A stretch of 64,000 nucleotides of DNA from Hypomyces perniciosus (Eukaryota; Ascomycota; Sordariomycetes; Hypocreales; Hypocreaceae), in NCBI GenBank assembly GCA_008477525.1, contig SPDT01000006.1:5035277-5099276 (forward strand). The letters are read 5' to 3'. A program made the translations under genes and the position numbers. Below are positions 10,818 to 49,391 of this stretch, in pieces (the first letter of the stretch is position 1; every line of letters begins with the position of its first letter). The notes under the pieces are model-generated. The model was not told the DNA's origin. It saw only the letters and a program-made list of their open reading frames with translations, and searched no databases.

Positions 10818-12140
10818 GGAGAACTAAGAAGGGGAGCCATTGTTGTACGAATTCATCAATTATCTTGAACGCCGTGATCTGAGCCTCAGACCCGTGGTGA
10901 CAAAATAAACGCTTACTTTTCTGTGTCGAAAGGAGTTAATTGAATCGATAGATGAGCAGAAACAAGCTAGGAGCATCCTATAGACAACCTGAAGGTAGAA
11001 TATTCTGAATAATGACTATACCTCGATGCAAAGATATGAGTAGCAACTAATAATTACCATCGCACTATTTCCATTAGCATCATCCGACATTTCCCATTCA
11101 TATTGTTCCCGAATACCTCCAGGCCTATGTCTTAGATTCCAATCCGTTCGATCATAAACGTGGATCATCCAAGCTAGATCTAGGGGAGAACCCTCACGTC
11201 AGAAAGCCCTCTATGCTCGTACCGTAACACGTTTAGAAGACACGGAGATTGAGAAAGTCGGTAGGAAAAAAATGGCAGGAGTCGCAAATCTCATAGTTTT
11301 CCCAATGAATGACCTACTTTTAACTCTGAGCTTTTTCGGGGCTGTTCTCGGCTATTATATCCAGAACAGCCAGGAACTCTGTAGGCCGCAGTTTTAAGTG
11401 AGAATTGCGAATAAAACATAGGTACCTGCATATAACAATAGACCCTTAGCCTTTGATACTGTTTCAAGATCCATCTCGCAAGTCCAGGCCGATAAGAGGG
11501 AATCAGTGATAGTAAAGAAAAGGCACTATTTTTCGGGTGTTGGCCCGACGGCCGAACATTCAAATTATAATTAATCGAGACTCCATTCATCAAAGATGAT
11601 AAACTATAAGATATGCCTGCTTGTATATATATAACTAGATAAATTCTCCTAGCCTCTTAGCATGCCTATGGTCAGTCTCCTTCCTAGTCTGTTTTACAGC
11701 CTCATTCAATACCGCACTCTGAGCCGGTGCTGCGTTAACATGAGTAGCGCCTGAGCAATATCTGAATCGTGCCTAAGTCGGGCAAACCACAACAACACCT
11801 GCATAAATATTCCATTCAGCTTGCAGCTCAGAAAGCCTCTGTGGGGTAGAATCAATAGCGCGTCAATAGCTGGAATTTCAGCTGGTGGATGTATATGCGG
11901 ATTTCAATAATATTCCTTCAGCTTTCCCAATATAGACTGACTGAGGGGCAAAAAGGCTGCATGCACCGGACTGCATTTTCCAATAGCATTTGTTGATCGT
12001 TCATTGCATTTCCTGCCACGCTCCAGTATATAATTACTTATCCAGGGACCTTTATGGTCATCGCGCACGGTCTCTTCTCATTAACTTTTCCTATCATCCG
12101 GTCAACAACGTCAACACTTGCAACGCAGTTGACGTTCACA
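10818..12140. other. Intergenic, no gene seen
   Basis: About 1.3 kb with scattered stops on both strands. A 100-codon open frame on the minus strand (11291-11593) has no recognisable motifs. The last ~150 bases are the likely promoter of the DUF2235 gene. Confidence 0.5.
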
Positions 12141-29164: not shown

Positions 29165-29944
29165 CTAGTTCTTCGGATCCCTTTTCATATACCGAATGAC
29201 ATACCTTCCCCAATTCCCGCTCCCCTTGTCCCCCATAACCTCCTCGCCCTCTCTTGGCCCTCTCGGTGCCCACTCATCCAAATCTAGGTCTAGCTCCCTC
29301 ACAGCCTCAAACCCAGATTTCTTGTACGCTTCATACGCCTGATGTGATGAATGCACCCAAGTGGTGAGGCCCAACTTGTCTGCGATAGCGTTGCCATGCT
29401 GCAGAAGGGCACTGCCTACGCCTCGGGATTGGTGCGAGATGGACACATGCAGGCCGGTGATGAACATGCAGGGCTTGTCCTTGGGAATGATGTTCGACTG
29501 CCAGTGTTCCATATCACGGTCTTCGAGAGCGTTGAGACGATCAATCGAGTCTTGCTGCTTTTTCTCTCCATCATCTTTCTTGTCCTCGTTTGCTGACTCG
29601 TCCTTGTTCCCATGCTGTTCTTCATTCACCGCTGACTTGTCATCTCCGGGTCCCCTCCAAGGAATCGCCGCTTGATCCACGCCCTTGAACGCCCAACCCG
29701 CATGCCCCACGATCTCGCCCGTCTCCTCGTCTATGGCTTTGACGTAGATTTGCGTCTTTCGGTGAAGATCGTCGAGGAACATAGAGCTGATGATCTCATA
29801 CATGTCATAGGGTTTTCGACCTAGGCCTTTCACGATGGTGTGCGGGTCGACGGCGAAGGCGGAGGAAGTTATCTGAGCGCAGGTGGGGATATCTGCATAG
29901 TTGAGGGGTTGTATGGAAACCGGGATGCGCTTGCTGGGAGACAT
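29165..29944 (-). CDS. GNAT-family N-acetyltransferase
   Basis: A single-exon protein of 259 aa. The GNAT fold starts with IQPLNYADIPTCAQITSSAF (residues 11-30). Strand 4 and the acetyl-CoA loop are ITGLHVSISHQSRGVGSALL, the last part being the Q/RxxGxG/A motif (QSRGVGSA). TTWVHSSHQAYEAYKKSGFE is the usual C-terminal helix with Tyr followed by the Gly-Phe turn. An insertion of about 50 charged residues (DDKSAVNEEQHGNK onward, rich in Lys/Asp/Glu) separates the two halves; such inserts are common in fungal members. The substrate cannot be told; many relatives acetylate small molecules or polyamines. The start MSPSKRIPV directly precedes the first strand and is well placed. Confidence 0.92.
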   Translation of the reverse strand: MSPSKRIPVSIQPLNYADIPTCAQITSSAFAVDPHTIVKGLGRKPYDMYEIISSMFLDDLHRKTQIYVKAIDEETGEIVGHAGWAFKGVDQAAIPWRGPGDDKSAVNEEQHGNKDESANEDKKDDGEKKQQDSIDRLNALEDRDMEHWQSNIIPKDKPCMFITGLHVSISHQSRGVGSALLQHGNAIADKLGLTTWVHSSHQAYEAYKKSGFEAVRELDLDLDEWAPRGPREGEEVMGDKGSGNWGRYVIRYMKRDPKN

Positions 29945-30523: not shown

Positions 30524-31291
30524 TTACTGTCCCATCATCATCTTCAACTCGCCAGGCTTTGCATCTCCAAATCCAGGATTCATCGAAACAAGAATCTGCT
30601 TCCCTGGACGACCCATGGCCATGCCCATCGCACAATGCTCCGCATGCTCTGTTGCGCTCGCAAACCCCGTGTATTGCATCTTGGCCTTGCCTCGTACTTG
30701 CTTCAACAGCGTAAAAAAGCAATGCTTGTCATGCCACTCTATTGTCGCCCAGGCCTGTCGTTCCGAGTCCGGCTTCTCTGCCAGAAGTGCCATTTCCTCG
30801 AGTGTGAATATCCTGGTTGAGTTGAAGTTGGAGGCGTAGTAGTTCCATTCGCCATTTGGGCCAGGACCTGATTTTTCAAAGAGATCCGTCAGTTCGTCAT
30901 CGCGGCAGTGTGGTGGAAGCCAGGAGGTGGAGAGGGAATCGTATTTGCAATCCAGAGTGAGTGCCTCTGCGATGGAGGAGCCACAATTGCACAGTGGTAT
31001 TGCTGCTTTTTGGATGCGGGCCGCAATATATATGCCGAGGGTGACGAGGCCATAGACGGCTAGTGCAATTATGACTGTCTTGAAGATGCACGACAAGATT
31101 GTACGAAGGCGACTTTTTGGCCGAGTGCGAGGGATGAAAAAGTCGGCGTCTTCTTCATCACTGGTCTTGATTTCCAAAAATTCATGTCTGTCGGCCTTGG
31201 GTATAAATGGCTCTGAAGAAGACGAGCTGTATTGGTCAGTCAATCTCTGTGATCCTAGACTTGCGGGTCGGACATACGAGTCCACTGTCAT
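30524..31291 (-). CDS. Single-pass membrane protein with two HxxHC-like motifs
   Basis: The likely start is MTVDSYVRPASLG at 31291 (255 aa); the frame stays open for 50 codons upstream without family-like sequence. A cytosolic acidic N-terminus is followed by one membrane segment (TVIIALAVYGLVTLGIYIAA) and an outer domain with CNCGSSIAEA, LDCKYDSLSTSWLPPHC and GPGPNGEWNYY. I recognise this as a widespread fungal family without assigned function. The outer domain carries HDKHC and HAEHC, both fitting HxxHC, the metal-binding signature of UstYa-type oxidases, although overall similarity to UstYa is not evident by eye. It lies 655 bp from the repeat precursor gene and reads in the same direction. 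It could be a fourth tailoring oxidase or an unrelated neighbour. Confidence 0.75.
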   Translation of the reverse strand: MTVDSYVRPASLGSQRLTDQYSSSSSEPFIPKADRHEFLEIKTSDEEDADFFIPRTRPKSRLRTILSCIFKTVIIALAVYGLVTLGIYIAARIQKAAIPLCNCGSSIAEALTLDCKYDSLSTSWLPPHCRDDELTDLFEKSGPGPNGEWNYYASNFNSTRIFTLEEMALLAEKPDSERQAWATIEWHDKHCFFTLLKQVRGKAKMQYTGFASATEHAEHCAMGMAMGRPGKQILVSMNPGFGDAKPGELKMMMGQ

Positions 31292-31946
31292 TGTGGGAGA
31301 ATATCTGTTACTGTGCGCGTAGAGGCTTTCTAGCAAAGTGAAGCGAAAAGAAAGAAAAAACGAGAGATGGAGAGTGTATGGATTATGCCCTCTGGACCTG
31401 GGGAGTTGGCTGAGGACACATGGATCTGACCTGTTGAGCAAGCACTGCTCGGGCCATTTGCAAACGAATTACGAGTACTATTACCGCGCTAATTAACGAC
31501 TGTCTCACAGGCCCCTAATCGGGCTGCAAAAGGATCCGCGTTTGGAACCCGCCCGTCTTAGGCCCGATCTCAAACCCCCGCAAATAGGCCTAACTTCAAT
31601 ACTATCCCGGTGTCACTTGAGGATCCTACCTTATCTGAGAATCAGGTTGGCGGTGGGGTAGACGCTAATGCGACTTGCCTGTTAGTTCTGAGTCACCATG
31701 GGCATTCAGCTTTGTCCTTGGGTATTCCTAAAAAAAGCCCACCCGGTGGGTAATCTGCAACTCTAGTCTCTGAGCTTTCACTCCACGTAGACTAGTCCGC
31801 AAAGAAGAAACATTTGAGGAATATGAATAGCTTAGGAACTTCTCTGTATATGCCACTAGTACACATTCAAACTGCGAGTAATTCTCAACTATTTGACAAA
31901 TATGCAACCATATATCTCCATGAGCAGTTATGGGGTATCCATGCGC
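31292..31946. other. Intergenic, no gene seen
   Basis: Promoter of the HxxHC membrane protein and 3' flank of the repeat precursor. No coding signal. Confidence 0.45.
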
Positions 31947-32411
31947 TTAATTCTCGTTGACCGCCTCAAAGTCTCCCGCAGTGCCATACTTGGGGTAGTT
32001 GTTGGTACGCTTAACCTTCTCATCGTTGACTGCCTCAAAGTCTCCAGCAGTGCCATACTTGGGGTAGTTGTTGGTACGCTTAACCTTCTCATCGTTGACT
32101 GCCTCAAAGTCTCCAGCAGTGCCATACTTGGGGTAGTTGTTGGTACGCTTAACCTTCTCATCGTTGACTGCCTCAAAGTCTCCCGCAGTGCCATACTTGG
32201 GGTAGTTGTTGGTACGCTTAACCTTCTCATCGTTGACTGCCTCAAAGTCTCCAGCAGTGCCATACTTGGGGTAGTTGTTGGTACGCTTAACCTTCTCATT
32301 GTTGACTGCCTCAAAGTCTCCCGCAGTGCCGTACTTGGGGTAGTTGTTTGTAGGTGCGGCGGCGGCAAGAGCCGCGAAGGTAATAACAATGGTGGTGATA
32401 AACTTAACCAT
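31947..32411 (-). CDS. Candidate RiPP precursor: secreted, six-repeat, Kex2-processed peptide (KEP/dikaritin type)
   Basis: A 154-aa protein. Residues 1-20 (MVKFITTIVITFAALAAAAP) are a signal peptide. The rest is six copies of a 23-residue unit beginning TNNYPKYGTAGDFEAVN and ending EKVKR. Five copies are full length; the last stops after AVNEN. Copy 1 has N instead of D before EKVKR; all others are identical. Lys-Arg at each repeat end is a Kex2 (kexin) cut site, so the protein should yield five or six nearly identical peptides with two Tyr each. This is how fungal dikaritin precursors (ustiloxin, phomopsin, asperipin types) are built, and three UstYa-type genes lie within 6.5 kb. The exact core is unknown; the Tyr-containing NYPKYG part is the best guess. 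An alpha-pheromone precursor is less likely (no Trp/Cys pheromone core). Confidence 0.85.
   Translation of the reverse strand: MVKFITTIVITFAALAAAAPTNNYPKYGTAGDFEAVNNEKVKRTNNYPKYGTAGDFEAVNDEKVKRTNNYPKYGTAGDFEAVNDEKVKRTNNYPKYGTAGDFEAVNDEKVKRTNNYPKYGTAGDFEAVNDEKVKRTNNYPKYGTAGDFEAVNEN
31950..32351 (-). repeat. 69-bp coding tandem repeat, 5 full copies + 1 partial
   Basis: Minus-strand units: 32351-32283, 32282-32214, 32213-32145, 32144-32076, 32075-32007 and 32006-31950 (partial). Copies differ only at a few positions, including a silent GCG/GCT alanine codon that alternates irregularly along the array. Near identity at silent sites suggests recent expansion or homogenisation, as expected for RiPP precursors. 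Confidence 0.95.
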
Positions 32412-33260
32412 CGTGTCTTTCTTGTTGATATGCTAAATCATCTCAGCTTGGGAAGCTTGTGGTTAAGAAAAGCACGAGGGACGTACCGTATAGGTGGTAG
32501 GTGGATTGGAAGAAGATGATGATAACTTTGAGATTCGACGTGGTGAATGAATCTCTTGTGTGTTTGTTCTCTGTGCTTTTATACTGGGCAAGGTGGGACA
32601 GTTTACGTACTCGTGACAACATCAATCAATACTTGTTATCCGTAATTTTCCTTCGACATGTATCTGCATGCGTGGCGACACCCTGTACGAAGGGGCGTGA
32701 TGTAAAGTGGGCTAGTCTCATGAAGGTCCCTACTCAAGGCTCCAGGAGTCCAGGTTGTCACGTACCAACTCAAAAGTTCCATCATTTGTCTTATATGGCG
32801 CAGCCGTTTGACGAAAGAGGTTATGTCCGAGATATTGCGACTGAGACCGATTCGATGCAGTGCAACCCCGACTCCGCTGCGATACATGGTACTTATGTAC
32901 TTTATGAATGTCATCATCCTGTCTCACAAAAACCAGGCTATAATGTTGCCAACACACCTACATGTATGTGGCAAAGGGTTTCAGAGATCCTATCACCGCT
33001 TCTCCGTCTCAAATCGTGTCGGTGACGAAAGTCAAATACCTCCACCCTGGGGTGAATCTTACCCTGCATGAGCTGGTATGAATAGCAGTTTGCTAATGTC
33101 AATTAGGAAACCACCAGTCCTCTTGACTCACTACACCCCCCAATTGCATTTCTATGCAATTCTCTCCTTACATCCTTCCCCCTCTCACATATCTTCACTT
33201 TCAATCACTCACTCTCTTTCAGTTTCTACCACCCAACCATCCTGAATCCAAATCGCCATC
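32412..33260. other. Divergent promoter region of precursor and first UstYa-like gene
   Basis: 849 bases between the precursor ATG (-) and the UstYa-like ATG (+). No convincing gene. Just upstream of the precursor a GTACGT donor-like site (about 32485, minus strand) could start a 5'-leader intron. The shared region would allow joint control of both genes. Confidence 0.5.
32578..32583 (-). promoter_or_regulatory. TATA-like box of the precursor gene
   Basis: Minus-strand TATAAA within CAGTATAAAAGCAC, about 167 bases upstream of the precursor ATG. It is a good match to a core promoter element; a possible leader intron lies between it and the ATG. Confidence 0.45.
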
Positions 33261-34483
33261 ATGGGATCTTGGAGCCAGGTCATCAAGGACTCGCTCGGCC
33301 GGACGCAGTTGTACTTTGCAGTGCCATCCGCAAGTTTAGAAAAGTCATCACGAACTTCTGACGAAGATAGTCTTGATGACCAGGACGGTGGGCGTGCCCT
33401 CCTCGGGGACGAAGCCTACCGTCTCTACCACCCACATCGACGCTTCGGTGCCCTCGCCGTCATCACCGCGACCTGCGTCTTGGTGCTCACTGCAGTGGGA
33501 GCCTTTCTGTTTGGAAGAGCGTGGCAGCCTCACATTGATGAGAAATGCATGAGGCACAGTTCAACCTACTGTCCGTCAAAGATCACAATATGCCAACTGG
33601 ATCTAACTTTTTTTAGCAACCGTAATGGGACAAGTCAGCAATAAATTACACGATGTCAAGTTCAATGGTATATCCCCCCACCAAACCCTTCATTTCTCTC
33701 TACGGTCAGCTAACCGGCCCAACAGGCACCCTTGGTAAGAATTCTGAGTTTTCCGGTCACTGGGGAGACCCAAATGAAGCCATGGACCGCGAGTGGAACA
33801 AATGGGGTTTCGGTAAGTTTGGTTCGTGGAGCCCCCTCCCCTTTTTCGACCTTGACCTGGCAACTCCTTGGCTGACCAGCGCTCCAGTCAAATACGCCAG
33901 CTTTTCCCGCGACGAATTTGCGGCAATGGGCATGGATTTGGAAGGGTCCGCCAAGTTCACTGAAGAGTACGGGGGCGGGTATATTGGGTTCCTCGAGATC
34001 AGTCACAAGATGCATGTAAGTACTCAGTAGTTTCGCTTGGACATACCCTTTTTGTCCTGCAGGTGAGCTGACAGATCGATAGTGTCTGAACGTGATCCGG
34101 CAAGCATATCACAGGGATTACTATGAAAAACCGGAGAACAAAAAATGGGCAACCTGGCTAGATGACAGGCCAATTACTGTCAAAGTGCATATCAGTGGGT
34201 ACCCACGCGCCACTACAATGCACGGTCTGCTAATCGTACCCATTATCTAGACCACTGCTTTGAAATGCTTCGGCAGAACATCATGTGTAGCGCTGACGTG
34301 GGCGTCATTCCTCATCATTGGGTAAAGGATATCCCGGACCCATTTGCCAACTTCAACACGGTGCACAAATGCCGCGACCTTGATAGCGTGGCCAAGTGGA
34401 TTGACGAGCATGTGGTACCGCCTCCACCAGCGACTGGGTATCCGATGCCAAAGGACTCCAAGGTCTGGCCGAGACCACCGTGA
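33261..34483 (+). CDS. UstYa-type (DUF3328) membrane oxidase, gene 1
   Basis: Six exons: 33261-33570, 33617-33667, 33726-33812, 33888-34015, 34083-34194 and 34251-34483, all with GT..AG introns of 46-75 nt and continuous phase, giving 306 aa. The N-terminal ~65 residues are cytosolic. One membrane segment follows (ALAVITATCVLVLTAVGAFL), then the lumenal oxidase domain. Both HxxHC motifs appear only after splicing: HKMHC spans exons 4/5 and HINHC spans exons 5/6, each followed by the usual helix (LNVIRQ, FEMLRQNIMCSADVG). The C-terminus has HKCRDLDSVAKW. UstYa-family proteins catalyse oxidative cyclisation of fungal RiPP cores and some other oxidations. The gene is divergent from the precursor, with an 849-bp shared upstream region. 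Confidence 0.9.
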
Positions 34484-34504
34484 GGAAAGAGGGAACAAAC
34501 ATTA

Positions 34505-35053
34505 CTTGGGGGGTCGTTTAACCAAGGAAAAGACACTTGACCAAGGAAAAGATAAAGTGACTTCAATCCCCCGCTATTTTTCCTACACAATACAGGTAGA
34601 TTTGTTGTTTGAATAACCTTTAGTTTTTTTGACAGATATGTATGAGTGATAATAAAACCTACCCTAAACATAGCAAATTGGTAACTATATTAGTCTATTT
34701 TTTGGACTGCAGATACACTGTGATTAAATAGGCTATAGTTGTTTTTTTACTTAAAACTATTAAAAATTGAAAATTTTACAAGATGTGGAAATTGAAGTGT
34801 TTATGTATACTCTGTATCATGAGGCGAAAAGACATATACTTCACTTTATATGTCGCATTACATGTAAGGTCACTTATCCACACGCACAATGTGGGCTTAC
34901 ATTTACTGGATTTTGATCTGATATCATATGTATATGTGGCTGCAGCTAAAATCTATGTCTTTGGTCTCAGTTAAGTGTCTTTTCCTTGGTTAACCGACCC
35001 CCCGTCCCCAACTATTAGGCACGGGAAAGTGGCTGACTTTTAGACCCCCCAAG
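34505..35053. mobile_element. 549-bp MITE with TA target-site duplication
   Basis: The ends are inverted: left CTTGGGGGGTC.. (34505) and right ..GACCCCCCAAG (35053), each flanked by TA (34503-34504 and 35054-35055). A second matching inverted block, AACCAAGGAAAAGACACTT, occurs at 34520-34538 and in inverted form near 34974-34994. The right arm has an extra ~45 bp between the two blocks that the left arm lacks. The interior is A+T-rich and codes for nothing recognisable. The TA duplication fits a Tc1/mariner-type MITE. It lies directly after the first UstYa-like gene. Confidence 0.8.
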
Positions 35054-35055
35054 TA

Positions 35056-36866
35056 ATGCTATAAAGGTGTCCGGGCTATTGGCTGGCATCAGCAGTGCTA
35101 ACTATAAAAGGATGGAGCTCAAGGCGGCGGTAGTAACGCAATATAGGTAGTTGTTAAAAGGTGGGCCAGGAAAGCGAGGAATCCGGTACCGTATACGGAG
35201 TACACTCGGTAAATCCGCCGGCCGCTAAAAAGAATAGGATATATAAGTCCCACTTCTCTCCACTCTGCTAACTTTCCATATACTAGCGTAAATCAGAGAT
35301 AGAAAAAGTTTGGTGTGATTAAAGACTTAAGTTTACTCCGTATATATGGATGACACTAGGGCTTATATGGGCCCGTGGCGCTGTTTAGCGGTCAGCAAAT
35401 CTACTGAGTTTATACGGTATAAGTGGTGACTTCCTAGTTGAGTTAGACCCAGAAGCTAGAACCGAAGCTAAGACCGGACTCCGGAGGAATCTCGGTTTAA
35501 GTCAAGCTGTTTCCCTACCTATTCCTAGGGTAACAATGCAGGAACTAGGGCCGGCCGCCTACCCTTGACTAGGGATTTTATATAGTATATAATGCTATTT
35601 TGGAATTCTGACGGAAATGGTTTCCTGTTTGTATCGCTGTAAGTCGATTTGGCCGATTTTCCATACAAATAATTTTGCGAAAAAAATAGGAATGAGGCCA
35701 CGAACCTAATTCTGCCATATGAAGACTATTATTCAGTCGGAGGTCTATTGTAGAAAACACTGTATTGTTCACGACAATCACTTCTTATAACCGCACACAC
35801 AAGCACTAGCATTCTACAACTTCTGTTAGCTAGATTTTTTAATTCAAGTTCTATTATTCGAGATCAGTTAATCCCTAAGACTGCAATAGTCATTTCCCTG
35901 TAATTGCTGCTAGGATCCTTCAGAGCAAGGTGCATTCTATAAGGATATCTATAATTTTGTTTTAATACTAAATTCAGGATTAGTCCAATAAACATTAATA
36001 ATAACATGCAGTAAAGCATAAACATTCATAGTATTAGCTCATAGATATATTAAAGATAGATTATATTTGGACTAAGCTACGTAAATAGTTATCTCGTAAA
36101 ATTAGTCATTTGAACTCATGTCGGTCGGTTTCCGCTGTCTCACCAGAAGCGATCTCCCTTCAGCGCACATATAGGTAAGGGAGGTGTCTTAAGCAATCCA
36201 TCTACGCGTACTCCGTACTCCGTACCTACTCGAGCCGAGGCTGTCACCGCAGGAGCTAGCGTGCATCACGGCGAAGAAAAGTGATAACAATTACGCAAGC
36301 CATGGCACATTTGCCACCCTTGTCACACTCGTCACATTTCTCACACCACAATTTGTCTCATGTTAAGTCCCATCACATTTACACTTTTGATTTCATAGGT
36401 ACCCGGAGGTTTGAGACCGGGGGGGCCTTGGTCGGGCAGAAAAAGTCAATATTAGACGGAAAGAAAACAGGTCTCAGAATTTCATGCCTGTCCCGACTTT
36501 TTCTGCCCGATTGAGGCCCCCAGTCTTAGTCGACTCCCCTCCCCCGGTCTCAAGCCTGCGGGTAATACCGTATATACCGAGTAGGCCCCCTCATAATAGT
36601 CTCCCCGCCAGCCTTGTCGCTTTCCTCCTTTTGGTACTGATCGGCCTGGCGTGCCAAGCCACTTCACATATGTCGATTTAGCGCTGATGAACTCCTTGCT
36701 TTCGATCGCCACTTCCTCTTTAGGCAATTATCCGGTCGGTGAGGCCGTCATATCGTCTAGGCGAGATCCTCCCGCGCCTAGGCAGGCTAGAACCTATTCG
36801 TAAACGAGTTCACATGCAACGCATACATCAATTTGCTATATGTATTGTTTTGGTATTTTTCGGCGC
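35056..36866. other. Intergenic, no gene seen; contains an inverted-repeat element
   Basis: About 1.8 kb between the MITE and UstYa gene 2. Mostly A+T-rich to about 36100, then GC-normal. Only short frames. Several TACGGAGTA/CTCCGTA motifs near 35190 and 36210. Confidence 0.5.
36411..36553. repeat. Inverted-repeat (MITE-like) element
   Basis: The left end TTGAGACCGGGGG is matched by inverted CCCCCGGTCTCAA at the right end. Inside, CGGGCAGAAAAAGTC (36433-36447) pairs with GACTTTTTCTGCCCG (36495-36509). The right arm carries about 24 extra bases between outer and inner blocks. A fold-back of this kind suggests a small non-autonomous DNA element. No clear target duplication was found. Confidence 0.6.
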
Positions 36867-37650
36867 TCATGGGAATACTGAATATTTACCAAGTGAAGCC
36901 GCTTTGACGGGGACCTTCTCAGATTGCAGCACATAGTCATAGAGCAACGAAGCATTGCGACACTGGTGCGTCTGCCCTATACCGTTGATTCCGTCCTCCT
37001 CTTTACCCTCTGCATCCAATCTGTTAATTGACCTTTCCAATGCATCATCTGCCGAGCACAGGATAGACTGTATGCTCTATTAGAACCATGGATGAGATGA
37101 AAGGCGTTGGGGTAAATTACCTGAACAATGTAATCAAAGCAGTGCATAAAATGTTTATCATCTTCCATATCATGCATACCACGACTCTCAATGGGATGTC
37201 TATGCATCTCGCCGCTCACCACAACGGTTCGACTACTCATTAATTAGATACTTTATCGTATAACTCGCGCGCAATATGAAATACTCACATCATACTTAGG
37301 CAGTGCAGCTGATGAAACATCGATACCCCAAAGCCATGATTCCTATTATCTTGCAGGTCGACCATTAGGAAGCCTCCGTTTGGTGTGAGCAGCGAATCCC
37401 AGAATTCTGTTTCGTTGGAAGACCCATTGCTGCCGTAAATCGGATGCATCCATGGATCTTTGACGAATTTTGTAGGCGAGAGCTCTTGCGATGGCGTGAG
37501 AGCTGAACACTCGTTCGACCGCACGCGGTCGACGACGGTGGTAATTATGTTATCATAACCGGGGCGGATGAGGAAAAGAATTGTGATAATGGTTATAGCC
37601 GAGGAGAAACATGCGACAAGGCATGTGTGGAGTGGTGTTGACGATATCAT
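36867..37650 (-). CDS. UstYa-type (DUF3328) membrane oxidase, gene 2
   Basis: Minus-strand exons 37650-37289, 37232-37121 and 37076-36867, with introns of 56 and 44 nt (GTGAGT..GAGTAG and GTAATT..AATAG), giving 227 aa. The start MISSTPLHTC leads directly into the membrane segment (LVACFSSAITIITILFLI). The lumenal domain has GFGVSMFHQLHCLSMI (motif 1, HQLHC) and KHFMHCFDYIVQ (motif 2, HFMHC), then SILCSADDALE and THQCRNASLLYDYV, all standard for the family. It is shorter than UstYa gene 1 because the cytosolic tail is almost absent. It shares a short divergent promoter with UstYa gene 3, so the pair is probably co-expressed. Confidence 0.9.
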
Positions 37651-37905
37651 TTTAGAATGTGATGAGGTATGTGTATGTGAGATGTGAGAGTAGGGTGGAT
37701 TATATGAAAATGAAGGATCGAAGTGATGGAGCTGTGGCGCTTGACGGAGTGCATGGCTCAATCCCTCCCTTGCGTCACACCCTTGCAAGCTCTAGAAAGC
37801 TACCCAGGCTACAAGTACTACGATGTATGTATTTACTAAATCTGCACTAGCTAATATCTATGGGCCGTTAGAGAGCGGGTGGCTAACAACTCGGCTCTGT
37901 GACTG
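37651..37905. promoter_or_regulatory. Divergent promoter between UstYa genes 2 and 3
   Basis: Only 255 bases (306 if the second ATG of gene 3 is used) separate the two starts, which read away from each other. A bidirectional promoter is likely; no specific binding site is claimed. Confidence 0.5.
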
Positions 37906-38812
37906 ATGCCCCCTCGCTTTCTGCTCTATCACACATCCCATTCTCAGTTCGAAGCAATGCTCGACTCGGCCCCAGAGAACGAAGTGCCCTTCCTGCCCAA
38001 GGATCATGAGGCCATGCGGACAGCACACCGCGACCACCAGAGCCGCCGAACCACTCGATGCTTGATAGTCATCGTCGCCTTGGTCAGTGCTTTGGTTTCT
38101 GTCGTCGGAACCGTTATTATGCACAATATTCTTCCAATATCTTCCATTGCTTCAAGTAGAAGCCCACCGCGACAGGAACTGCTTCCATCATTGAACCTCC
38201 CACCACTCGGAAGCCTTCTTCGAACTTATGTCGGCGGATCCGCCTACTATGATAAAGATCTGAATGCCAGCCGTGAAGCGTGGATGTCGTTGTTTCCTCG
38301 TACGTTGTTTGCCCTTTGATCACCGTGACTGATACTGATCGAGTCTCAGCGGGAATGGGCTACGTTTCTATGGACAACATAAAAGAAGCAGGAGACATCC
38401 CTCAAATCTTTCAAGATATGAGCACGGATGACTCAGGGCGCTTCTGTGTTGCTGCATTCCATCAACTTCACTGTCTCGTAAGCCTTCCTGCTGCTTCATT
38501 CGCAATCGCCTTCTAAATGCCCACCAGTTCCTCATCTACGCCGACTTTCGCCGCGCCCTAAGCGGGGAACTCACGCATGCATTACACGATTCGCATTCTT
38601 TACACTGCTTTGATTATCTCCGAGAAAGTATTATTTGCGCCGCAGACAGTGCTCTTGAGCCTTTCCGCTCTCAGTTCGATGGTGGTACTCAAGGTAACGG
38701 TGTCGATGGCTTTGGAACTGTGCATCAATGTCGAGATTTCAAACAGTTGTTTGAGTGGAGTGAGAAATTTCGATACAGTGATGGGCATAACGCGGAGAAA
38801 TTTGAGGGATGA
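37906..38812 (+). CDS. UstYa-type (DUF3328) membrane oxidase, gene 3
   Basis: Exons 37906-38299, 38350-38477 and 38528-38812, both introns 50 nt (GTACGT..CTCAG, GTAAGC..CCAG), giving 268 aa, or 251 aa from the second ATG at 37957 (MLDSAPENEVPFLPKD), which looks like the usual family start. Membrane segment: CLIVIVALVSALVSVVGTVI. Motif 1, FHQLHCL, ends exon 2; motif 2, SHSLHCFDYLRES, is in exon 3, followed by IICAADSALEPF and VHQCRDFKQLFEWSE. Two HxxHC motifs are thus intact. It forms a divergent pair with UstYa gene 2 and reads toward the PKS fragment. Confidence 0.9.
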
Positions 38813-39430: not shown

Positions 39431-40465
39431 ATGACCCATTTCTCTAAGGATACAGCCATTATTGGCATGGCCTGTCGCGCCGCTGGTGGTAACAACTCTC
39501 CCGAGGAGCTCTGGCAGTTTCTCTTGGAAAAGAAAGATGCTTCGGGCGAGGTGCCCCATTGGCGTTGGGAGCCGTGGGTAAAGCGAGATGTCCGCAACGC
39601 CAAGGAGATTAGGAAAACGCTCACCCGCGGCTATTTTATTGAAGACTTGGAGGACTTTGATGCCGCCTTCTTTGGCATCTCACCAAAAGAGGCGGAGCAA
39701 ATGGACCCGCACCAACGGCTGGCCCTTGAGCTGAGCTGGGAGGCACTCGAGAACGCAGGTGTCGACCCCATGAGTCTGGCAGGGTCCAATACGGCAGTCT
39801 TCATGGGTGTCGACTCGGATGACTACTCTCGCCTACTGCTCGAAGACATCCCCAATATTGAACCGTGGATGGGCATCGGCACCGCTGCACACGGCGTGCC
39901 TAATCGCATATCCTATCACCTGGATCTCATGGGGCCTAGCGCTGCTGTCGATGCTGCATGCGCTTCGTCACTTGTTGCCGTGCACATGGGTCGTCGGGCC
40001 ATCCTTAATGGTGAGTCTGATGTAGCTATTGTTGGAGGCGTCAACGTACTGCTAGCACCTGCACTCACATGTATGCTTGGTAAGGCAGGTGTACTCTCTC
40101 CGGATGGTATTTGCCGCTCCTTCGATGATGGTGCCAACGGCTACGCACGTGGAGAGGGAGGTGCTGTGTTTATTCTCAAGACGCTGACAAGTGCAATAAC
40201 CGACGGTGATAATATCCTTGCCGTCCTCAGGGGGAGCGCCGTTGCCCACGACGGGAAGACCAAAGGAATTATGGCACCGAATGCCAAAGCCCAAGCACTT
40301 GTCGGGCGCCAGGCACTCGCACAGGCTCAAATTAATCCATTGACAGTAGGGTATATTGAAGCACACGCAACATCTACGCCATTAGGCGATCCCACGGAGA
40401 TGACTGCCATAGAGGCCATCTATGGGTCTGGAGCAGGGAGGTGCCCCGAAAGCCCTATCAGATGA
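39431..40465 (+). pseudogene. Truncated polyketide synthase: ketosynthase (KS) domain only
   Basis: 344 residues from a good start ([20 protein letters not shown]) through most of a type I KS. The active Cys is in DAACASS (about residue 177) and the first catalytic His in [11 protein letters not shown] (about 312). The sequence style ([38 protein letters not shown]) matches fungal partially reducing, 6-methylsalicylic-acid-type synthases, which are about 1750 residues long. The frame stops after CPESPIR, just before the Lys/GHxxxxAG region with the second catalytic His, and A+T-rich non-coding DNA follows. AT, DH, KR and ACP domains are absent. It cannot be a working synthase. The breakpoint is abrupt at about 40465, as after a deletion or rearrangement near the chromosome end. 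Confidence 0.92.
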
Positions 40466-41798: not shown

Positions 41799-44700
41799 CA
41801 GGGCTGCATCCCGATCAAATCAAATCAAATATTCTATTAAACAAACAAACAAATAAAGCTATTTTTAATAATTCAACAGTTAAATGTATAAGGCTTAATA
41901 TTTAACTTATTTAATTAAATAATTTAAAGTAGTTTTCTTTTAGAATATTATTATTTTAAGCCTAGATATCTATAAAAAAAATATATTTCTATAAGCTATA
42001 AAAAGGTTTACTTAAATATATATAGCCTATAGTAGGAATTAAACTTATAACTTTTTTATAATAGTTATTTTTAGAGATTAGATTATTATATAAGCTTTTT
42101 TATTAGTTATTAACTATGCCTTTGATTATAATTTATATATTATATAGCCTAGCTAGCCTTTAATATAAATCTAGCTTAGTAATACTACTTTATATATATT
42201 ACAATACTATATATATTACTACTATTTAAATATATTAATAATATAACTTTATTTGCATATATACCTTTAATATAATAAATCTTTTAATTTTTAACTTATC
42301 TTTTTATTGCAGTATTTTATTGCAATTTAAAAATGCCTTTAAAATTATCTTTTTTTTTATTTTTTGCTTTAATAGCTATAAAATAATTAAAAATATTTTA
42401 ATAGTAATTTGGCGCAGTTGCTGCTTTATCTTTAATAAATTAATATTATAAAAAGGATTATAAAGCTATATAAGCTAGATTTAAAAAAAAGGCGATTTAT
42501 ATAGGAAATCCTTGCTAGCTATACTTTAAGTATATTATTCTAGATTCCTATCTTTTTTTATATTAATTTTTATAGGTAAATGTTTTTTAGATTTACTGCT
42601 ACTGTAATAAAAAGGGGGCTATTTTAGAGCTATATAAAGCATTAGCAATAACTTTTATAATTAACTATTTTAAAAAATAGTATAAAATATTAAAACATAA
42701 TATTACTGATTTAAATATAAATTTTAATTTTAATAATATTACCCTGCCCTTTACTAAGTAATAGCAATAAAATACTATATTAATTCTATAGTTATATATA
42801 TAAAAAGTTTATAAACTTTACATTATGTATATTATTAATACTAATTTATTATATAAAGCGCTTAAAAATAAATATCTTTAATTTATTATATATTAAATAT
42901 AATAAATCTGTTAAAGTAAAATAAATTAATGTAATTCCTTTAATATAATATTCTCTTTTAAAAAGGGATTTGTTAAAGTAAAGCTTTATACTTTATTATT
43001 ATAAATTTATTTTAATTTTAATCTATAAACTTCTTTAAATTAAAATATAATAATAGCAGTTATTCGCTATTTTTTTTAACTTATATAGTTATTAATAATA
43101 ATATCCTTTTACTTTTTAATAATAGCCTAGAAGTTATATAAAAGAGAATTTTATATACTTTTTAATAAATTATAGATAATTGGAATTTTATTAATTAAAT
43201 TAATATAGTTATCTCTAATAATATATTAAATAATAATATATATATATAGTATTTGTTTTATAGTTTAGACTTATAAATAACTAAAGATAATGTATTCAAA
43301 AGGCAAATATAATATTATAGATATATTTTAAATTTTGTTAACTAGGCCTTTTTATTTAAAAAGGATTATAAAGCTTTTAAATAAGAATTATAACTTTATA
43401 TTGTTATTCAGTACTTTAATAATAATTTTTGCTATTAAAAATATCAAAGTTTTATTAATAAGCTTTATAATATTATTATATTTATTTATTCCTTTTTTTA
43501 ATAAAATAAATATTTTAAAGAGTATACTGAAAAATTTAATAAAAATCATAATTTCTAAATCATTAGTAAATCTGCATTTAAATTAAAGTTTATTTTTAAT
43601 AATAAAATAAAATAAAATTCAATATATTTAATAATTAAATAAGTATTATGAAAGTAGCAGTATATTTAGAAATTCCTATATAAAGATAACTTTAAAAAAA
43701 GCTAAATATGTAGTATATTTTTTAAAAATATCTTTATATTTAAAGATTAGCAGCTTTTAATAGAGATTAAAGAAATCTTTTAACGTTTTTATAGTTAAAT
43801 AATATAATATTAAAGCTAAAGGATTAAAAGCAGTTATAGTTGACTGTAAGAGATTATAATAGGCATTAAATTCTTTTTTAAGTCTTTTAAAGATTAAAAA
43901 GTATTATATATTATATTTACTAATAAGGAAATTTAATAAATTTAAAGCTAAATGCAAATTATAAACTTAACTTAATTAAAGTATATATAATAAAATGTCT
44001 TTATAATAACCTTTTTTTAACCCCTTTAATCTTTTATATCTTAATTAAATATACTATAAAGTCTTTTTACCAATATATAAAACAATTATATTAAAATAAG
44101 CTAGATATTATAAATAAAGTAAACTTTATTTTTTTTTAAAAGGCTTTAAAGTATACTTTTAAGTCTTTATTATAATTATATAGTAGAAGTTTAATATTTA
44201 TGATACTTAGTTTAAAGAATTATTTTTATTTATAGCAGCAGTTATTTTATATTTAAGCTTAAATATTAAATAGTTAGAGAATTATTAGAATAGCGAGGAC
44301 TAGTTTATATAGCTTTATAATATTAAAGATAGTTTTACTATATACTAAAAGTATTAATATTATAATTAGGATAATAAAAGTATATTTAATTAAGATTTAA
44401 TATTAAAAAACTTCTTTTTAGTATTAAGGAAAGATAAAGAAAAGAGTAATTATTAATTATAGTTTAATTATAAAATAGTAAAATTATTTAATAATAGCGT
44501 TAAGCTTAAAAAATATTATTGCTTTAATTTGCCTTAAAAGGTTAATAATTTAATATGGTGGTAAATATTATATTAGTATATATTTTTAACTTTTAATAAA
44601 CTTGCTTTTAATATATTAGCAATTCCTGCTATAGCGGCTAACTATAAAAGAGCTTTTAGTTTTATTAAGTTAATATTAACCTTTTAGCGACTTTTTATAA

Positions 44701-44989
44701 AGCTATTAATATTTAAAAAGGTATAATATTTAAAGAATTAGCTGTAAAAAGGCATAATTATACTTAAAGGGAATTTTATTTTTAAAGGGGAGAAGTAGAG
44801 TAATTAAATTAGTATTAATATTAAGGAAATTAAGGGATAAAGGCATTAAGGAATTAAGAATAGTATTACCTAATTAAATATATTAAATTAAATTAAATCT
44901 AGTTAAACAGTTAAATATAGCATCGAAATTCAATTAAATAGTTAAATGTAGGGTCTAGATTTGCTTTGTTTGATTGGGATGCAGCCCTG
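41799..44989 (+). mobile_element. Complete but RIP-degraded hAT-superfamily DNA transposon (3191 bp)
   Basis: The left end CAGGGCTGCATCCCGATCAAA is the inverted copy of the right end, with one mismatch (right end inverted: CAGGGCTGCATCCCA then ATCAAA). Both ends are flanked by the same 8 bp, ATTGTTTG (41791-41798 and 44990-44997). An 8-bp duplication is diagnostic of hAT elements. The interior is nearly all A and T with stops in every frame, as after heavy C-to-T mutation by RIP. A remnant of the transposase C-terminus is still readable on the + strand at 44616-44681. The right terminal ~60 bp and the left ~30 bp keep a near-normal base composition. Confidence 0.9.
44616..44681 (+). pseudogene. 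Remnant of hAT transposase C-terminal dimerisation (hATC) region
   Basis: Twenty-two codons read without a stop: LAIPAIAANYKRAFSF then IKLILT. They match the hATC pattern, in which a Leu-x-Ile-Pro is followed by Ala/Ser-x-x-x-Glu/Lys-Arg-x-Phe-Ser. A Trp-Trp pair lies ~50 bases upstream, as in intact transposases. It confirms the hAT call and gives the element's orientation. Confidence 0.75.
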
Positions 44990-44997
44990 ATTGTTTG

Positions 44998-46437
44998 TTG
45001 TTTGTTTATTTTATTATTTATATCTATTAAGTAAACTGGTTATATAAATCCCTTATAGGCAATTGGATATTAAGAGTTAGCGGCTTATACTGCTATTTGC
45101 TGAGTTTCAATTTATAAAGGAAAAAGGGTTAATTTAAGTAGTATTAATCTATTTCCGCTAAGGGAGGACTATAAAGGTCCGCTTCCTTTATTAGTTTCTA
45201 AACGGCTTTATTTCCTGTAGGTTTAAATAAATAAAAAAGGGGGGTCTCTTTTGAAGGGATATTTAGAAAGAAAGGCTTCACTATTCTATATTCTATAAAG
45301 TAGCTTTATTTCTTTAATTTACTATATTTACAGATAAACCCTCTATTATATTTAAAGCATTTATAGTATTCCTAGACGTCTTTATATTTTAATCTTTCTA
45401 TTAAAAGCCTATAAAGGATAAAGTATAAAAGTTTAAATTTTAAAGGGGAAGTTAAGGCTTTAAGTTTTTATTATTTATAGCTTTTTAAGGTTTTATTAAA
45501 TTAATTTTACTCCTTTACTTTTATAACTTTTTCTTTAATTTATCTTTTAATATATATAATTATAGCCTAGTTTTATAGTATAATAAAGAAAGCTGTGCTT
45601 AATTTAGCTAAACAGTTAACTTATTTATTACTTATAATATCCTTATATTTTAAAACCTATAAAATAAAGCTTTTATAAAGTAAAATATTTTATGGTAGTT
45701 TCCAAAAGTATATATATACTCTTTATATAAAAAAGGGGGTTTATTAAATAGCCTATTAATAATTAATAAATTATTTAAGAAAAGGAAAGTTATTTAAATT
45801 ATATAGTTTTCCTTTATATATCTAGCCATTAGCTTTATAGCCTTTAAAGTAACCTATACCTTTATATTATAAACCTTTATATTATTAAAGTATTTAATAT
45901 TTATAGTTACTTTTACTTTATAATAAGCAATTACTTTTTAATTTATATTCCTTTTAATTTAAAATTTATTAAAGTAAATTAAAATTAAATAAAAGGGGAA
46001 AGATTTAATTATTTTTAAATATTCTTTTACTGCAGTTAATTTACCTATCCCTTTAAATTAAAATTAAAGAGAATATATAGGGACTTTTTAATAAAGAGTA
46101 TAAGTTTAATAGTCCTGTTAATTAAGGCGGCAGTATATTAAAATTTAGTTTATAGTAGCTAAGGAGGGAGTTTTTTATTAATATATTAATTAATTAAATA
46201 GTTTTAATCTAGTCCTGTGAATTTTACTCTGTATTTAAATTAAACTTAAATTAAAGCAATATTAATTAAAGGGACCTTTTAACTTTTTATATAAAACGGG
46301 AATACTTATAGTCTTTTAAATTAAAAAAACTGCCTTTACTATAGCTTTAAACGCTTTATATCTTTTATTTATTAAGTTAAATACTTTTATATTTATTTAT
46401 TTAATAAAGTTAGTTTATAATTATTATTTATACCCTA
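44998..46437. other. A+T-rich block, probably RIP-degraded repeat DNA
   Basis: Very low G+C with dense TA dinucleotides and stops in all frames. No end repeats or protein remnants could be recognised by eye. GC is slightly higher near 45060-45260. Confidence 0.6.
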
Positions 46438-46442
46438 GCTAC

Positions 46443-46668
46443 TGTAACGGGTGTAGCCTAACTGGAAAGCACGCAGTTAGGGCACCTCTGTATTGTCTAT
46501 CTATAGCTGAAGGAAGGAAGCTCTATACTAGCTATGTATGCGTTATATAGTTGTGCGTATAGGGTTGTGGCCGAGGTGGTTTCCTAATTAGGTAAGCGGT
46601 CTAGTATTGGTCGTATTTCCGGATTCGGCGTAGTCGTGATTCCGGGAGACATGGCCTAGCCTGTGACA
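46443..46668. mobile_element. Solo LTR (226 bp) with 5-bp target duplication
   Basis: Starts TGTAACGGG and ends CTGTGACA, i.e. TG..CA with short inverted ends. It is flanked by GCTAC on both sides (46438-46442 and 46669-46673). No internal retrotransposon sequence is next to it, so it is a solo LTR left by recombination, type undetermined. Its base composition is balanced while the DNA on both sides is extremely A+T-rich. A pol III A-box-like TGGCCGAGGTGG occurs inside, but no good B box. Confidence 0.8.
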
Positions 46669-46673
46669 GCTAC

Positions 46674-48270
46674 TATACATTTATTTTATACAAAGTAATA
46701 GGGAGGATATAGGCCTTTATAGTTTATATTATAGCTTTAAAAGGTAAGCTTTTTTAACTTTTATTAAATAATTTAAAAAAGTTAAAGACTTGATATATTT
46801 TACTTATAAGTATCTCTATATATTTTTTAAAAGAAAGCTTTAAGTTAAAGTAAACCCTTAATTATTAAATATTTTTTTTATATTAAATTAGTTTTCGTTT
46901 TATTATAATGCCTTTTTTATATATTTAGCCTTTTATATAGTAAACGTATAGTAATTCTGCTTTAATATAGTTAAAGGATATTGCGTTTTCTACTTTTCAT
47001 TTTAGTATTTTATTAAATGTTTATTATATAAAGGTAACTATTTCTTTAATCAACTTGCCTATAATACATATAGTAATGTTATTAATATATTTAAAATAAA
47101 ATTATTAATCTTTAAATTAAAAGATTGGGCTAAAGTAAAGTATTAATATAATAAAGAAAATATAGGATTTTTATACAGCTTTATATTTAAAGGTAAAGCC
47201 TAGTAAATTAATTTCTTTTTATAAATAAAGGTAGTTTTATTATTTATAAAGGATTTTATTTATTTTATAAATTAAATACGTTATCTTTATTATTTAAGCT
47301 GTAGGATTAATTTATTTTTTATAATAATATTAAAAGCCTTAAAGATATTAAAGGTAAATAAAGTTATAACCGTTTTTTTATTTAAAGTAACTTTAATATT
47401 ATAAATTAAATAGGCAATTTAATCTATAGCTATTGTTTTAAAAAAGGCTTTAAAGTATTACTTTAAAAGGATTTTATATTTAAATATTAAAAGGGATACC
47501 CTTTTAATAAATAGTCTTTAAAGCCTTTTTTATATAAAATAGCAGTAATATAAGCCTAAAAGCTTTATAGTTTAAATAATTAAGTTTATTAAATTTAAAA
47601 ATAATAATAACCTTTATATTTTTAAAAAGGAAAAAGTAATACTTTAATTTAAAATAGCCGTTAAAAAGGTTTATAATAAACTTTTTAATAGTAGGCTATA
47701 TATAATATAAAAAGGTAATTAATATATTATTAATATTAAGCGCAGTATTTTTTACTTTAATCATAGCTTTCTTTACTTTTTTTTTAATAACTGTTTTATT
47801 TTATAGTATTTAAAGGTTCTTTAATATGTAAAGTTCTTATAAGTTTTTAATATTTTCTTTTACTCCCTTTTACTATAATAGGTATTTTTTAAAAAAAAGT
47901 TATTTATTTTTTAAAGTTTAAAATCCTTTTATTACTTTTTTAATATACTTTAATAAATTAAGGTATTTAATTTATTATTATAATAAAAAGTAAATAATAA
48001 AACTATAGGGTAAAGGGAGGTATAGTTAAGGTAAAACCTGTGCTTGGCTATAGGGTTAGACTTAGATTTTTATACCTTTATAGCTTTATACCCTAAGCTA
48101 AAGCTTTTTTTATATAGGTTTAAAAGATTTTATATTTTATAAGTTTTAATAAATGTAATAAAGAAAGAAAAGGTAAAGAAAAGAAAAAAAAAGAAAAGGA
48201 GGGATAGTTAAGGCTAACCTCCTATTTAGCTATATAGTTAAGCCTATGTTTTTGGCTTTTATAACTATAT
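46674..48270. other. A+T-rich block, probably RIP-degraded
   Basis: Continuation of the block interrupted by the solo LTR. No readable gene. Contains a 93-bp sequence found again near the telomere, and two diverged direct copies of a ~80-bp segment (about 48014-48106 and 48199-48277) next to the satellite. Confidence 0.6.
47932..48024 (+). repeat. 93-bp dispersed repeat, copy 1
   Basis: Matches 62400-62492 on the same strand with a single difference (AATAATAAAA here, AATGATAAAA there). The flanking sequences are unrelated. Such identity stands out inside otherwise divergent A+T-rich DNA. Confidence 0.8.
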
Positions 48271-48569
48271 ACCCTGGGGTTAAACAGTCTTATACGCTAA
48301 GGTTAAAGAATCTTGTCCCCTGGGGTTGAAGAATCTTGTCCCCTGGGGTTAAAGAGTCTCGTCCCCTGGGGTTAAAGAATCTCGTCCCCTGGGGTTGAAG
48401 AATCTTGTACCCTGGGGTTGAAGAATCTTGTCCCCTGGGGTTAAAGAGTCTCGTCCCCTGGGGTTAAAGAGTCTCGTCCCCTGGGGTTGAAGAATCTTGT
48501 ACCCTGGGGTTAAAGAGTCTCGTCCCCTGGAGTTGAAGAATCTCGTCCACTAGGGTTAAAGAGTCCTGT
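48271..48569 (+). repeat. 23-bp satellite, 13 tandem units
   Basis: Thirteen units of CCCCTGGGGTTAAAGAGTC plus TCGT-type ends, without gaps (299 bp). Units fall into sub-types (TTAAAGAGTCTCGT versus TTGAAGAATCTTGT) in mixed order. The first two and last two units are the most diverged, as is normal for array edges. It marks the border between the A+T-rich block and the GC-normal island. Confidence 0.92.
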
Positions 48570-49391
48570 ATAGTTATTAGGTTGGAAGGAGGGCTTGCAC
48601 TTACCTAACAATATAAACAAGACTTGAAATTTACTTATTTATATCAATACTATAATATAAACAGCTAAGTTAATAATTCATAATTAAGATTAATATAGAA
48701 TAAATAAATACTCCCAGTTTATTTTGAAGTAGCTATAGCTGGTTTACCAGTATAGCTGCAATGGTTTGGCTATACCAGGGCTTCAGTCGTGGCAAGATTG
48801 CAGGTCTATTGCCGCTGTCTGCAGGCTCTCCCAGCTCAGCCAAAATTGCAAAAGAGAATGAATTCACTTATCGGTCAGGTTCAGTTAATAGCTATACCTA
48901 TCAAGGTTTCAAGCAAGTCCCAGGGACCTGGATTATTATAGCCAAATTGCACGTAAAAGGCAAAGCCTATAATAATATAGCCCTTATATAGTTCGCCATA
49001 TATATATAAAGGATGAAAGAGCACTGAACGATAGGATAAAAGACGAGGCGCAGAGAATCGAGAAGTGTATGGGGATAAGGGGATGATATAGACTCGTGTT
49101 TATTATTACTATCCTAAAGTAGTAAAGCGCTGGCAGGCTATTTGACCCACCTACTTCGTATATAACCCAGTGGCTAGGTAGGGCTAGTCTTTTATAGTGG
49201 ATTAATAAATATAGAAAAATAATAAATAATGCTGCGGCTTATAATCCCTGTAAGGGACCCTGGATAGGTGCTTGGTTTTAAGCTGGCAGACTAAAATTCA
49301 TCTCTAGGTATTTTGGCTGACATTGGGGTTAACTTGGAAGCTGAGGATAACAATATCTATAAAGCTACGCACCTGATAATAATACCGGATA
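48570..49391. other. Intergenic, no recognised gene
   Basis: A 76-codon frame at 48761-48991 has no family I recognise, though its composition is protein-like. The rest includes the promoter of the ParB-like gene. Confidence 0.4.

What the first reader, a model, noticed from the sequence alone, without database searches (positions are those of the whole stretch)
30524..38812. Candidate new dikaritin-type RiPP cluster in a subtelomere
A secreted precursor with six near-identical Kex2-bounded repeats lies with three spliced UstYa-type genes (each with two HxxHC motifs) and a fourth HxxHC-containing membrane protein. UstYa-type oxidases plus a repeat precursor define fungal dikaritin pathways (ustiloxin, phomopsin, asperipin, epichloecyclin types). 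The repeat, with NYPKYG as the likely core region, matches none of the cores I know. No S41 peptidase, flavin monooxygenase or methyltransferase is in the window, so the product may be made by a minimal set or need genes elsewhere.
Basis: partly seen in the sequence, partly recalled or inferred. Interest (0 to 1): 0.93.

Follow-up and report, generated by a model that had tools for sequence, protein, structure and literature searches.

The report
Conserved fungal repeat-peptide (RiPP) gene cluster
Near a chromosome end of a fungus lies a small set of genes that appears to make a secreted, enzyme-modified peptide cut from six near-identical repeats; parts of this set recur together in distantly related fungi, and the product is unknown.

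Summary
A 154-aa secreted precursor (window 31947-32411, minus) carries six near-identical 23-aa copies (TNNYPKYGTAGDFEAVNDEKVKR) with five KR (Kex2-type) sites between them. Three spliced genes beside it score as UstYa (PF11807), each with two HxxHC motifs; a fourth one-pass membrane protein, gene A, has two as well. The contig ends in telomere repeats.

Comparison argues against chance: 8 of 26 hits of UstYa gene B share a contig length with a gene A hit, six of them also the species name (Hypocreales, Xylariales, Sordariales, Geoglossomycetes). In Rhypophila the precursor homologue has the locus tag next to gene A; in Cladobotryum and Trichoglossum one tag lies between A and B, where the precursor lies here. 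The best-supported core is A-precursor-B; whether UstYa genes C and D belong is untested.

Most likely Kex2 frees the repeats in the Golgi and copper-dependent DUF3328-type enzymes oxidise or cross-link them, probably at the invariant YPKY. This is an uncharacterised member of the known dikaritin-type RiPPs; product, core limits and chemistry are inferred.

The parts
30524..31291 (-). Gene A: 255-aa one-pass membrane protein with two HxxHC motifs (residues 187-191 and 216-220); probably a strongly diverged UstYa/DUF3328 relative; neighbour of the precursor in Rhypophila too
31947..32411 (-). Precursor: signal-like N-terminus plus six 23-aa copies TNNYPKYGTAGDFEAVNDEKVKR (last copy cut short), five KR sites between copies
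32412..33260 (.). 849-bp divergent intergenic region between precursor (-) and UstYa B (+); likely holds both promoters (inference)
33261..34483 (+). Gene B: UstYa (PF11807), 306 aa, introns 33571-33616, 33668-33725, 33813-33887, 34016-34082, 34195-34250; HKMHC and HINHC
36867..37650 (-). Gene C: UstYa (PF11807), 227 aa, introns about 37233-37288 (3' site chosen among alternatives) and 37077-37120; HQLHC and HFMHC; membership of the cluster untested
37957..38812 (+). Gene D: UstYa (PF11807), 251 aa (or from 37906), introns 38300-38349 and 38478-38527; HQLHC and HSLHC; divergent with C across 306 bp; membership untested
34498..35062 (.). Repeat element with inverted ends lying between B and C (not part of the pathway; bears on whether C and D belong)

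Best explanation
A dikaritin-type RiPP biosynthetic cluster whose conserved core is gene A, the repeat precursor and UstYa gene B. The precursor enters the secretory pathway. Signal peptidase and Kex2 (cutting after each KR) give six near-identical peptides of about 21 residues starting TNNYPKYG. Membrane-bound HxxHC(x)nHxxHC copper oxidases facing the lumen (B, and A as a diverged relative, perhaps with C and D) oxidise the peptide, most likely cross-linking one or both invariant tyrosines of YPKY. Other proteases then trim it and it is secreted. Shown here: precursor anatomy, Kex2-type sites, UstYa membership of B, C and D, motifs in A, and recurring A-B linkage (with the precursor between or beside them where it could be seen). 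Inferred: the copper chemistry (carried over from published DUF3328 enzymes), Tyr cross-linking, core limits, the roles of C and D, and the biological role of the peptide.
For: Precursor with six repeats and five KR sites. Homologous precursors in Trichoderma sp. SZMC 28011 (72% identity over 71% of the query) and Rhypophila sp. PSN 637 (68% over 43%), with signal-like start, repeat and KR|T junctions conserved; all 13 copies of the three species carry YPKY and E-x-VN. UstYa domain in B, C and D. Linkage: 8 of 26 B hits have the contig length of an A hit (recounted), six with the same species name; Rhypophila A = V8F33_012884, precursor = V8F33_012885, B on a contig of the same 54,403 bp; Cladobotryum A/B = PT974_07855/07853; Trichoglossum A/B = GP486_002006/002008. 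Gene A family: at least two HxxHC motifs in 57 of 59 rows, their H and C residues nearly invariant; 11 of 59 members hit PF11807 at E<=0.01. Published mechanism: the DUF3328 protein CctR is a membrane-associated, dimeric, binuclear-copper, O2-dependent enzyme using HxxHC(x)nHxxHC (PMC12435403, abstract and passages). Definition of dikaritins as RiPPs from Kex2-processed repeat proteins cyclised by UstYa homologues (PMC10512285, passages).
Against: No product is known and no expression data were available. 18 of 26 B hits have no A hit of equal contig length, and Lecanicillium saksenae has A and B hits on different contigs; each hit is a cluster shown with one contig, so these misses are hard to read. 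The Trichoderma precursor's contig (922,052 bp) matches no A or B hit. The precursor search found only two relatives (capped at 7994 scored candidates of about 85-270 aa), none of them the gene between A and B in Cladobotryum or Trichoglossum, so that those genes are precursors is a prediction. Gene A itself has no Pfam match and profile comparison with B is weak: probability 38.6% at best, 5.5% in the other direction, 0.9% with untrimmed alignments. No cluster peptidase, transporter or regulator was identified.
Confidence: 0.77

Rival explanations
1. The functional unit is A-precursor-B only; C and D are a separate divergent UstYa pair, perhaps left from another cluster (such as the one the adjacent truncated ketosynthase came from), brought near by subtelomeric rearrangement. 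(A narrower form of the best explanation, not its opposite.)
For: B and C are separated by 2.4 kb holding an inverted-repeat element, a stretch of which has 39 further matches elsewhere in the genome. The truncated ketosynthase at 39431-40465 follows D, and its nearest relative (66% and 59% pieces) sits 7.5 kb from the end of contig C22. D has a 58% identical exon in another two-UstYa locus where no precursor was seen.
Against: C and D are two of about 15 UstYa genes in the genome and start within 5.6 kb of the precursor; characterised clusters can hold several (five in phomopsin, PMC7329392 passages). Shared promoter words were uninformative: none of 8 bases in all three intergenic regions, but only 0.18 expected by chance.
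Confidence: 0.45
2. The precursor yields linear secreted peptides (a pheromone-like or signalling repeat protein) and the UstYa genes act on something else.
For: Many Kex2-processed repeat proteins may be unmodified: only 22% of 7878 had a DUF3328 gene nearby (PMC7329392 passages).
Against: Linkage to A and B in other fungi; tyrosines invariant in all 13 copies; in the same survey 98.6% of 216 putative fungal pheromones lacked DUF3328 neighbours.
Confidence: 0.1
3. Decaying subtelomeric cluster: genes intact in frame but not expressed or no longer functional.
For: Telomere-proximal position with AT-rich blocks and a truncated ketosynthase next door. The precursor itself has a high TpA/ApT ratio, 1.87, though at 50% GC and in a short repeated sequence, where the ratio reflects the repeat unit.
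Against: All four enzyme genes and the precursor are open with every HxxHC motif kept; six of nine codon differences between repeat copies are synonymous; A, B, C and D have 46-52% GC and TpA/ApT of 0.39-0.63.
Confidence: 0.08

Closest known systems
Asperipin-2a type dikaritins (few-gene repeat-precursor + UstYa clusters)
   Same: Repeat precursor with Kex2 sites, UstYa oxidase, few genes, tyrosines in the repeat (asperipin joins two internal tyrosines, PMC9233826 passages; four genes sufficed for it, PMC10512285 passages)
   Different: Two HxxHC partners in the conserved core (A and B) plus C and D here; no reductase or transporter, named for asperipin in PMC12048977 (passages), was identified; precursor sequences were not compared
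Ustiloxin / phomopsin type dikaritins
   Same: Repeat precursor, more than one UstYa gene, HxxHC oxidases
   Different: The only S41 peptidase hits in the genome are on C7 and C14 and tyrosinase hits on C22 and C16; no methyltransferase among the 30 open stretches scanned
Epichloecyclins (GigA)
   Same: Secreted multicopy precursor, probably Kex2-processed, Tyr in the repeat
   Different: Epichloecyclins are cyclic nonapeptides joined Tyr-Ile (PMC9233826 passages); this repeat has no Ile
CctR and other DUF3328 copper enzymes (cyclochlorotine pathway)
   Same: One membrane segment and two HxxHC motifs in A, B, C and D; helical domain behind the membrane helix in the model of A
   Different: CctR hydroxylates the cyclic peptide cyclochlorotine (PMC12435403; that it is non-ribosomal is recalled); the substrate here would be ribosomal

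Membership tests
Dikaritins (RiPPs from Kex2-processed repeat proteins cyclised by UstYa homologues; definition as in PMC10512285) | Secreted precursor with tandem repeats separated by Kex2 sites | tested here: met
   signal-like N-terminus, six copies, five KR sites
Dikaritins (RiPPs from Kex2-processed repeat proteins cyclised by UstYa homologues; definition as in PMC10512285) | UstYa (DUF3328, PF11807) gene beside the precursor | tested here: met
   B, C and D over the Pfam cut-off; B homologue on the precursor's contig in Rhypophila
Dikaritins (RiPPs from Kex2-processed repeat proteins cyclised by UstYa homologues; definition as in PMC10512285) | Mature product is a cyclised or cross-linked repeat peptide | not testable with these tools
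   needs mass spectrometry
Ustiloxin/phomopsin sub-type | Cluster-encoded S41 peptidase | tested here: not met
   two S41 hits in the genome, on C7 and C14, none on C23
Ustiloxin/phomopsin sub-type | Tyrosinase in the cluster | tested here: not met
   hits only on C22 and C16
DUF3328/UstYa family, gene A | Score over the Pfam PF11807 cut-off | tested here: not met
   no match; 11 of 59 relatives match at E<=0.01
DUF3328/UstYa family, gene A | HxxHC(x)nHxxHC behind one transmembrane helix | tested here: met
DUF3328/UstYa family, gene A | Homology to UstYa by profile comparison | tested here: inconclusive
   E 3e-4 and probability 38.6% at best, aligning both motifs; 5.5% in the other direction; 0.9%
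Ascomycete alpha-pheromone precursors | No DUF3328 neighbours (context of nearly all pheromone-type repeat precursors, PMC7329392 passages) | tested here: not met
   UstYa neighbours present, B on the precursor's contig in Rhypophila as well
Ascomycete alpha-pheromone precursors | Sequence similarity to known pheromone precursors | not tested
   no pheromone sequence was compared

The most novel reading that the evidence does not exclude
Gene A founds a second, Pfam-invisible branch of binuclear-copper peptide oxidases that works together with a UstYa enzyme of the B type on one invariant YPKY peptide, as a minimal three-gene RiPP pathway kept over class-level distances in Ascomycota, which suggests a conserved physiological role rather than a lineage-specific toxin.
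Probability: 0.3. Interest if true: 0.7.

Novelty: new member of a known kind. Interest (0 to 1): 0.5.

Why it matters
A 2022 review counts only five reported dikaritins against at least 838 types of Kex2-processed repeat proteins (PMC10512285, passages). This is a compact cassette with a predicted substrate (the invariant YPKY repeat) and a predicted pair of oxidases, with relatives in four orders and two classes, including the genera Trichoderma and Cladobotryum. That makes it a small, directly testable model for how DUF3328 copper enzymes choose and modify a ribosomal peptide, and it points to an un-named HxxHC family (gene A) that the Pfam UstYa model misses in 48 of 59 members at E<=0.01.

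Tried and rejected

Literature: eight searches. 'YPKYG' anywhere in the full texts gave one unrelated algal paper. That the precursor family is undescribed rests on that search: text inside figures, supplements and papers not held were not seen. Seen in part: PMC7329392 (passages, part 1 of section 6), PMC6339444, PMC12048977, PMC12435403, PMC9233826, PMC10512285, PMC10989895, PMC11265373 (passages only), PMC7099791 (outline and the Results; its detailed Trichoderma reesei candidate is a different, non-repeat peptide without UstYa in the listed cluster). The Cladobotryum genome paper (PMC10989895) lists 3 fungal RiPP clusters in C. mycophilum; I could not tell whether one is this cassette.
Full report
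What is in the sequence. The window is the end of contig C23 of a 44.0-Mb, 23-contig fungal assembly and closes in TAGGGT telomere repeats. On the minus strand at 31947-32411 lies a 154-aa protein: MVKFITTIVITFAALAAAAP followed by six copies of TNNYPKYGTAGDFEAVN-DEKVKR, the last one cut short. The DNA repeat is 69 bp with 97% matches. Five KR sites separate the copies; the first copy follows the signal-like stretch directly. It is the only such sequence found in the assembly.

Neighbouring genes. B (33261-34483, +), C (36867-37650, -) and D (37957-38812, +) score as UstYa, PF11807, at E 1.8e-45, 1.2e-16 and 2.7e-23. Each has two HxxHC motifs and one N-terminal hydrophobic stretch. B's five-intron model is supported by gap-free collinearity with an 88% identical Cladobotryum protein of the same length. 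C's first intron has several possible 3' sites and was chosen by analogy. Gene A (30524-31291, -) has no Pfam match but shows HDKHC and HAEHC behind one membrane helix. Its AlphaFold model has mean pLDDT 82.7 and places each motif near the start of a helix.

Other genes checked. Pfam scans of 30 of the 132 open stretches of 90 aa or more in the window gave no S41 peptidase, methyltransferase, flavin monooxygenase or tyrosinase. In the whole genome, S41 hits lie on C7 and C14 and tyrosinase hits on C22 and C16. To the left are a GNAT acetyltransferase, ankyrin proteins and a subtilase. To the right is a truncated ketosynthase.

Related sequences. Cut at KR, all 13 copies of the three species carry YPKY and E-x-VN; copies picked by the pattern TN[DNS]YPKY, which are the same 13, give TN[DNS]YPKY[GK][KT][AF][EG][DE][FY]E[AE]VN. 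In Rhypophila the first copy is preceded by a KR, which supports KR|T as the processing point.

Conserved neighbourhood. Gene A gave 66 hits and B gave 26. 8 of the 26 B hits have the contig length of an A hit: Cladobotryum mycophilum, Annulohypoxylon moriforme, Whalleya microplaca, Xylaria cubensis, Rhypophila sp. PSN 637, Trichoglossum hirsutum, and two unnamed contigs. 18 do not, among them Lecanicillium saksenae, whose A and B hits are on different contigs. Because hits are clusters at 90% identity shown with one contig, a non-match is weak evidence. The Trichoderma precursor's contig matches no A or B hit. In Rhypophila the tags of A (V8F33_012884) and precursor (V8F33_012885) are consecutive. 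In Cladobotryum (PT974_07855/07853) and Trichoglossum (GP486_002006/002008) one tag lies between A and B, where the precursor lies in this window; that such tags run in map order is recalled, not tested, and the genes between were not seen. Rhypophila is in Sordariales, Cladobotryum in Hypocreales, Annulohypoxylon, Whalleya and Xylaria in Xylariales, Trichoglossum in Geoglossomycetes. Vertical descent and horizontal transfer were not separated. The best named hits of A and B are from Cladobotryum and Trichoderma, so the host is probably of the Hypocreaceae (inference).

What gene A is. In 59 aligned members, 57 have at least two HxxHC motifs, and W186, H187, H190, C191, H216, H219 and C220 are nearly invariant. 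11 of 59 members reach PF11807 at E<=0.01. Direct profile comparison with B is weak: E 3e-4 with probability 38.6% in one direction, 5.5% in the other, 0.9% with untrimmed alignments. I read A as a strongly diverged relative of UstYa; this is likely, not proven.

How it probably works. Published work shows that the DUF3328 protein CctR is a membrane-associated dimer with a binuclear copper centre at HxxHC(x)nHxxHC, needing O2 and electrons (PMC12435403, abstract and passages), and that dikaritin precursors are cut by Kex2 in the Golgi and cyclised by UstYa homologues (PMC9233826, passages). By analogy the TNNYPKYG... peptides released here would be oxidised in the lumen by B and A, with the two invariant tyrosines of YPKY as the likeliest sites. 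The number of cross-links, the trimming and the final core are unknown.

C and D. They are genuine UstYa genes but their place in the pathway is open. The gap between B and C holds an element with inverted ends; a stretch of roughly 75 bp of it has 39 further matches in the genome, a lower bound, and one further place matches its ends. D has a 58% identical exon in a two-UstYa locus on C8 where no precursor was seen. C has only weak matches elsewhere in the genome (37% over short stretches). All three protein searches had gone to the precursor, A and B, so linkage of C and D elsewhere was not tested.

Comparison with known systems. By the published definition (PMC10512285, passages) the locus meets the genetic criteria of a dikaritin cluster; the product criterion cannot be tested here. 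It is not of the ustiloxin/phomopsin make-up (no S41 peptidase or tyrosinase in the cluster) and is nearer to the few-gene asperipin plan. In a survey of 1461 fungal strains, 22% of 7878 repeat precursors had DUF3328 genes nearby at a mean distance of 3.09 genes (PMC7329392, passages), so the arrangement is of a known kind. The repeat itself was not found in the papers held.

Verdict. A real, conserved, uncharacterised member of a known class. Its value lies in the compact cassette and in gene A, rather than in a new principle.

Noticed in passing
window 34498-35062: Repeat element with 34-bp inverted repeats (94% complementary) and a 16-bp outer pair; a stretch of roughly 75 bp of it has 39 further matches in the genome, a lower bound. 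Looks like a short non-autonomous mobile element.
   Followed up: partly
window 39431-40465: Ketosynthase domain cut off after 344 aa, with the C-terminal part incomplete; nearest relative (66% and 59% pieces) is at C22:7490-8496, close to another contig end, suggesting exchange between chromosome ends.
   Followed up: partly
window 42001-48000 and 61001-63800: Blocks of 9-26% GC with raised TpA/ApT and lowered CpA+TpG ratios, as left by repeat-induced point mutation; genes A-D do not share this, while the precursor has TpA/ApT 1.87 at 50% GC, probably an effect of its repeat unit.
   Followed up: partly
window 48272-48569 and 58325-58762: Tandem arrays of 13 copies of a 23-bp unit and of nested 60/118/178-bp units near the chromosome end.
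   Followed up: no
window 52382-54796, 49383-51698, 56021-57610: Long open stretches (805, up to 289 and 530 aa) without any Pfam match.
   Followed up: no
window 5246-6439, 11997-13296, 14065-16266: A protein with CVNH and LysM domains, a Tle1-like phospholipase-domain protein and a HET-domain protein.
   Followed up: no
L022:6385-8429 (G000 C8): Two adjacent UstYa genes, one 58% identical to gene D over its last exon, with no repeat precursor seen nearby.
   Followed up: partly
window 29165-29944: GNAT acetyltransferase gene next to gene A; whether it belongs to the cluster was not tested.
   Followed up: no
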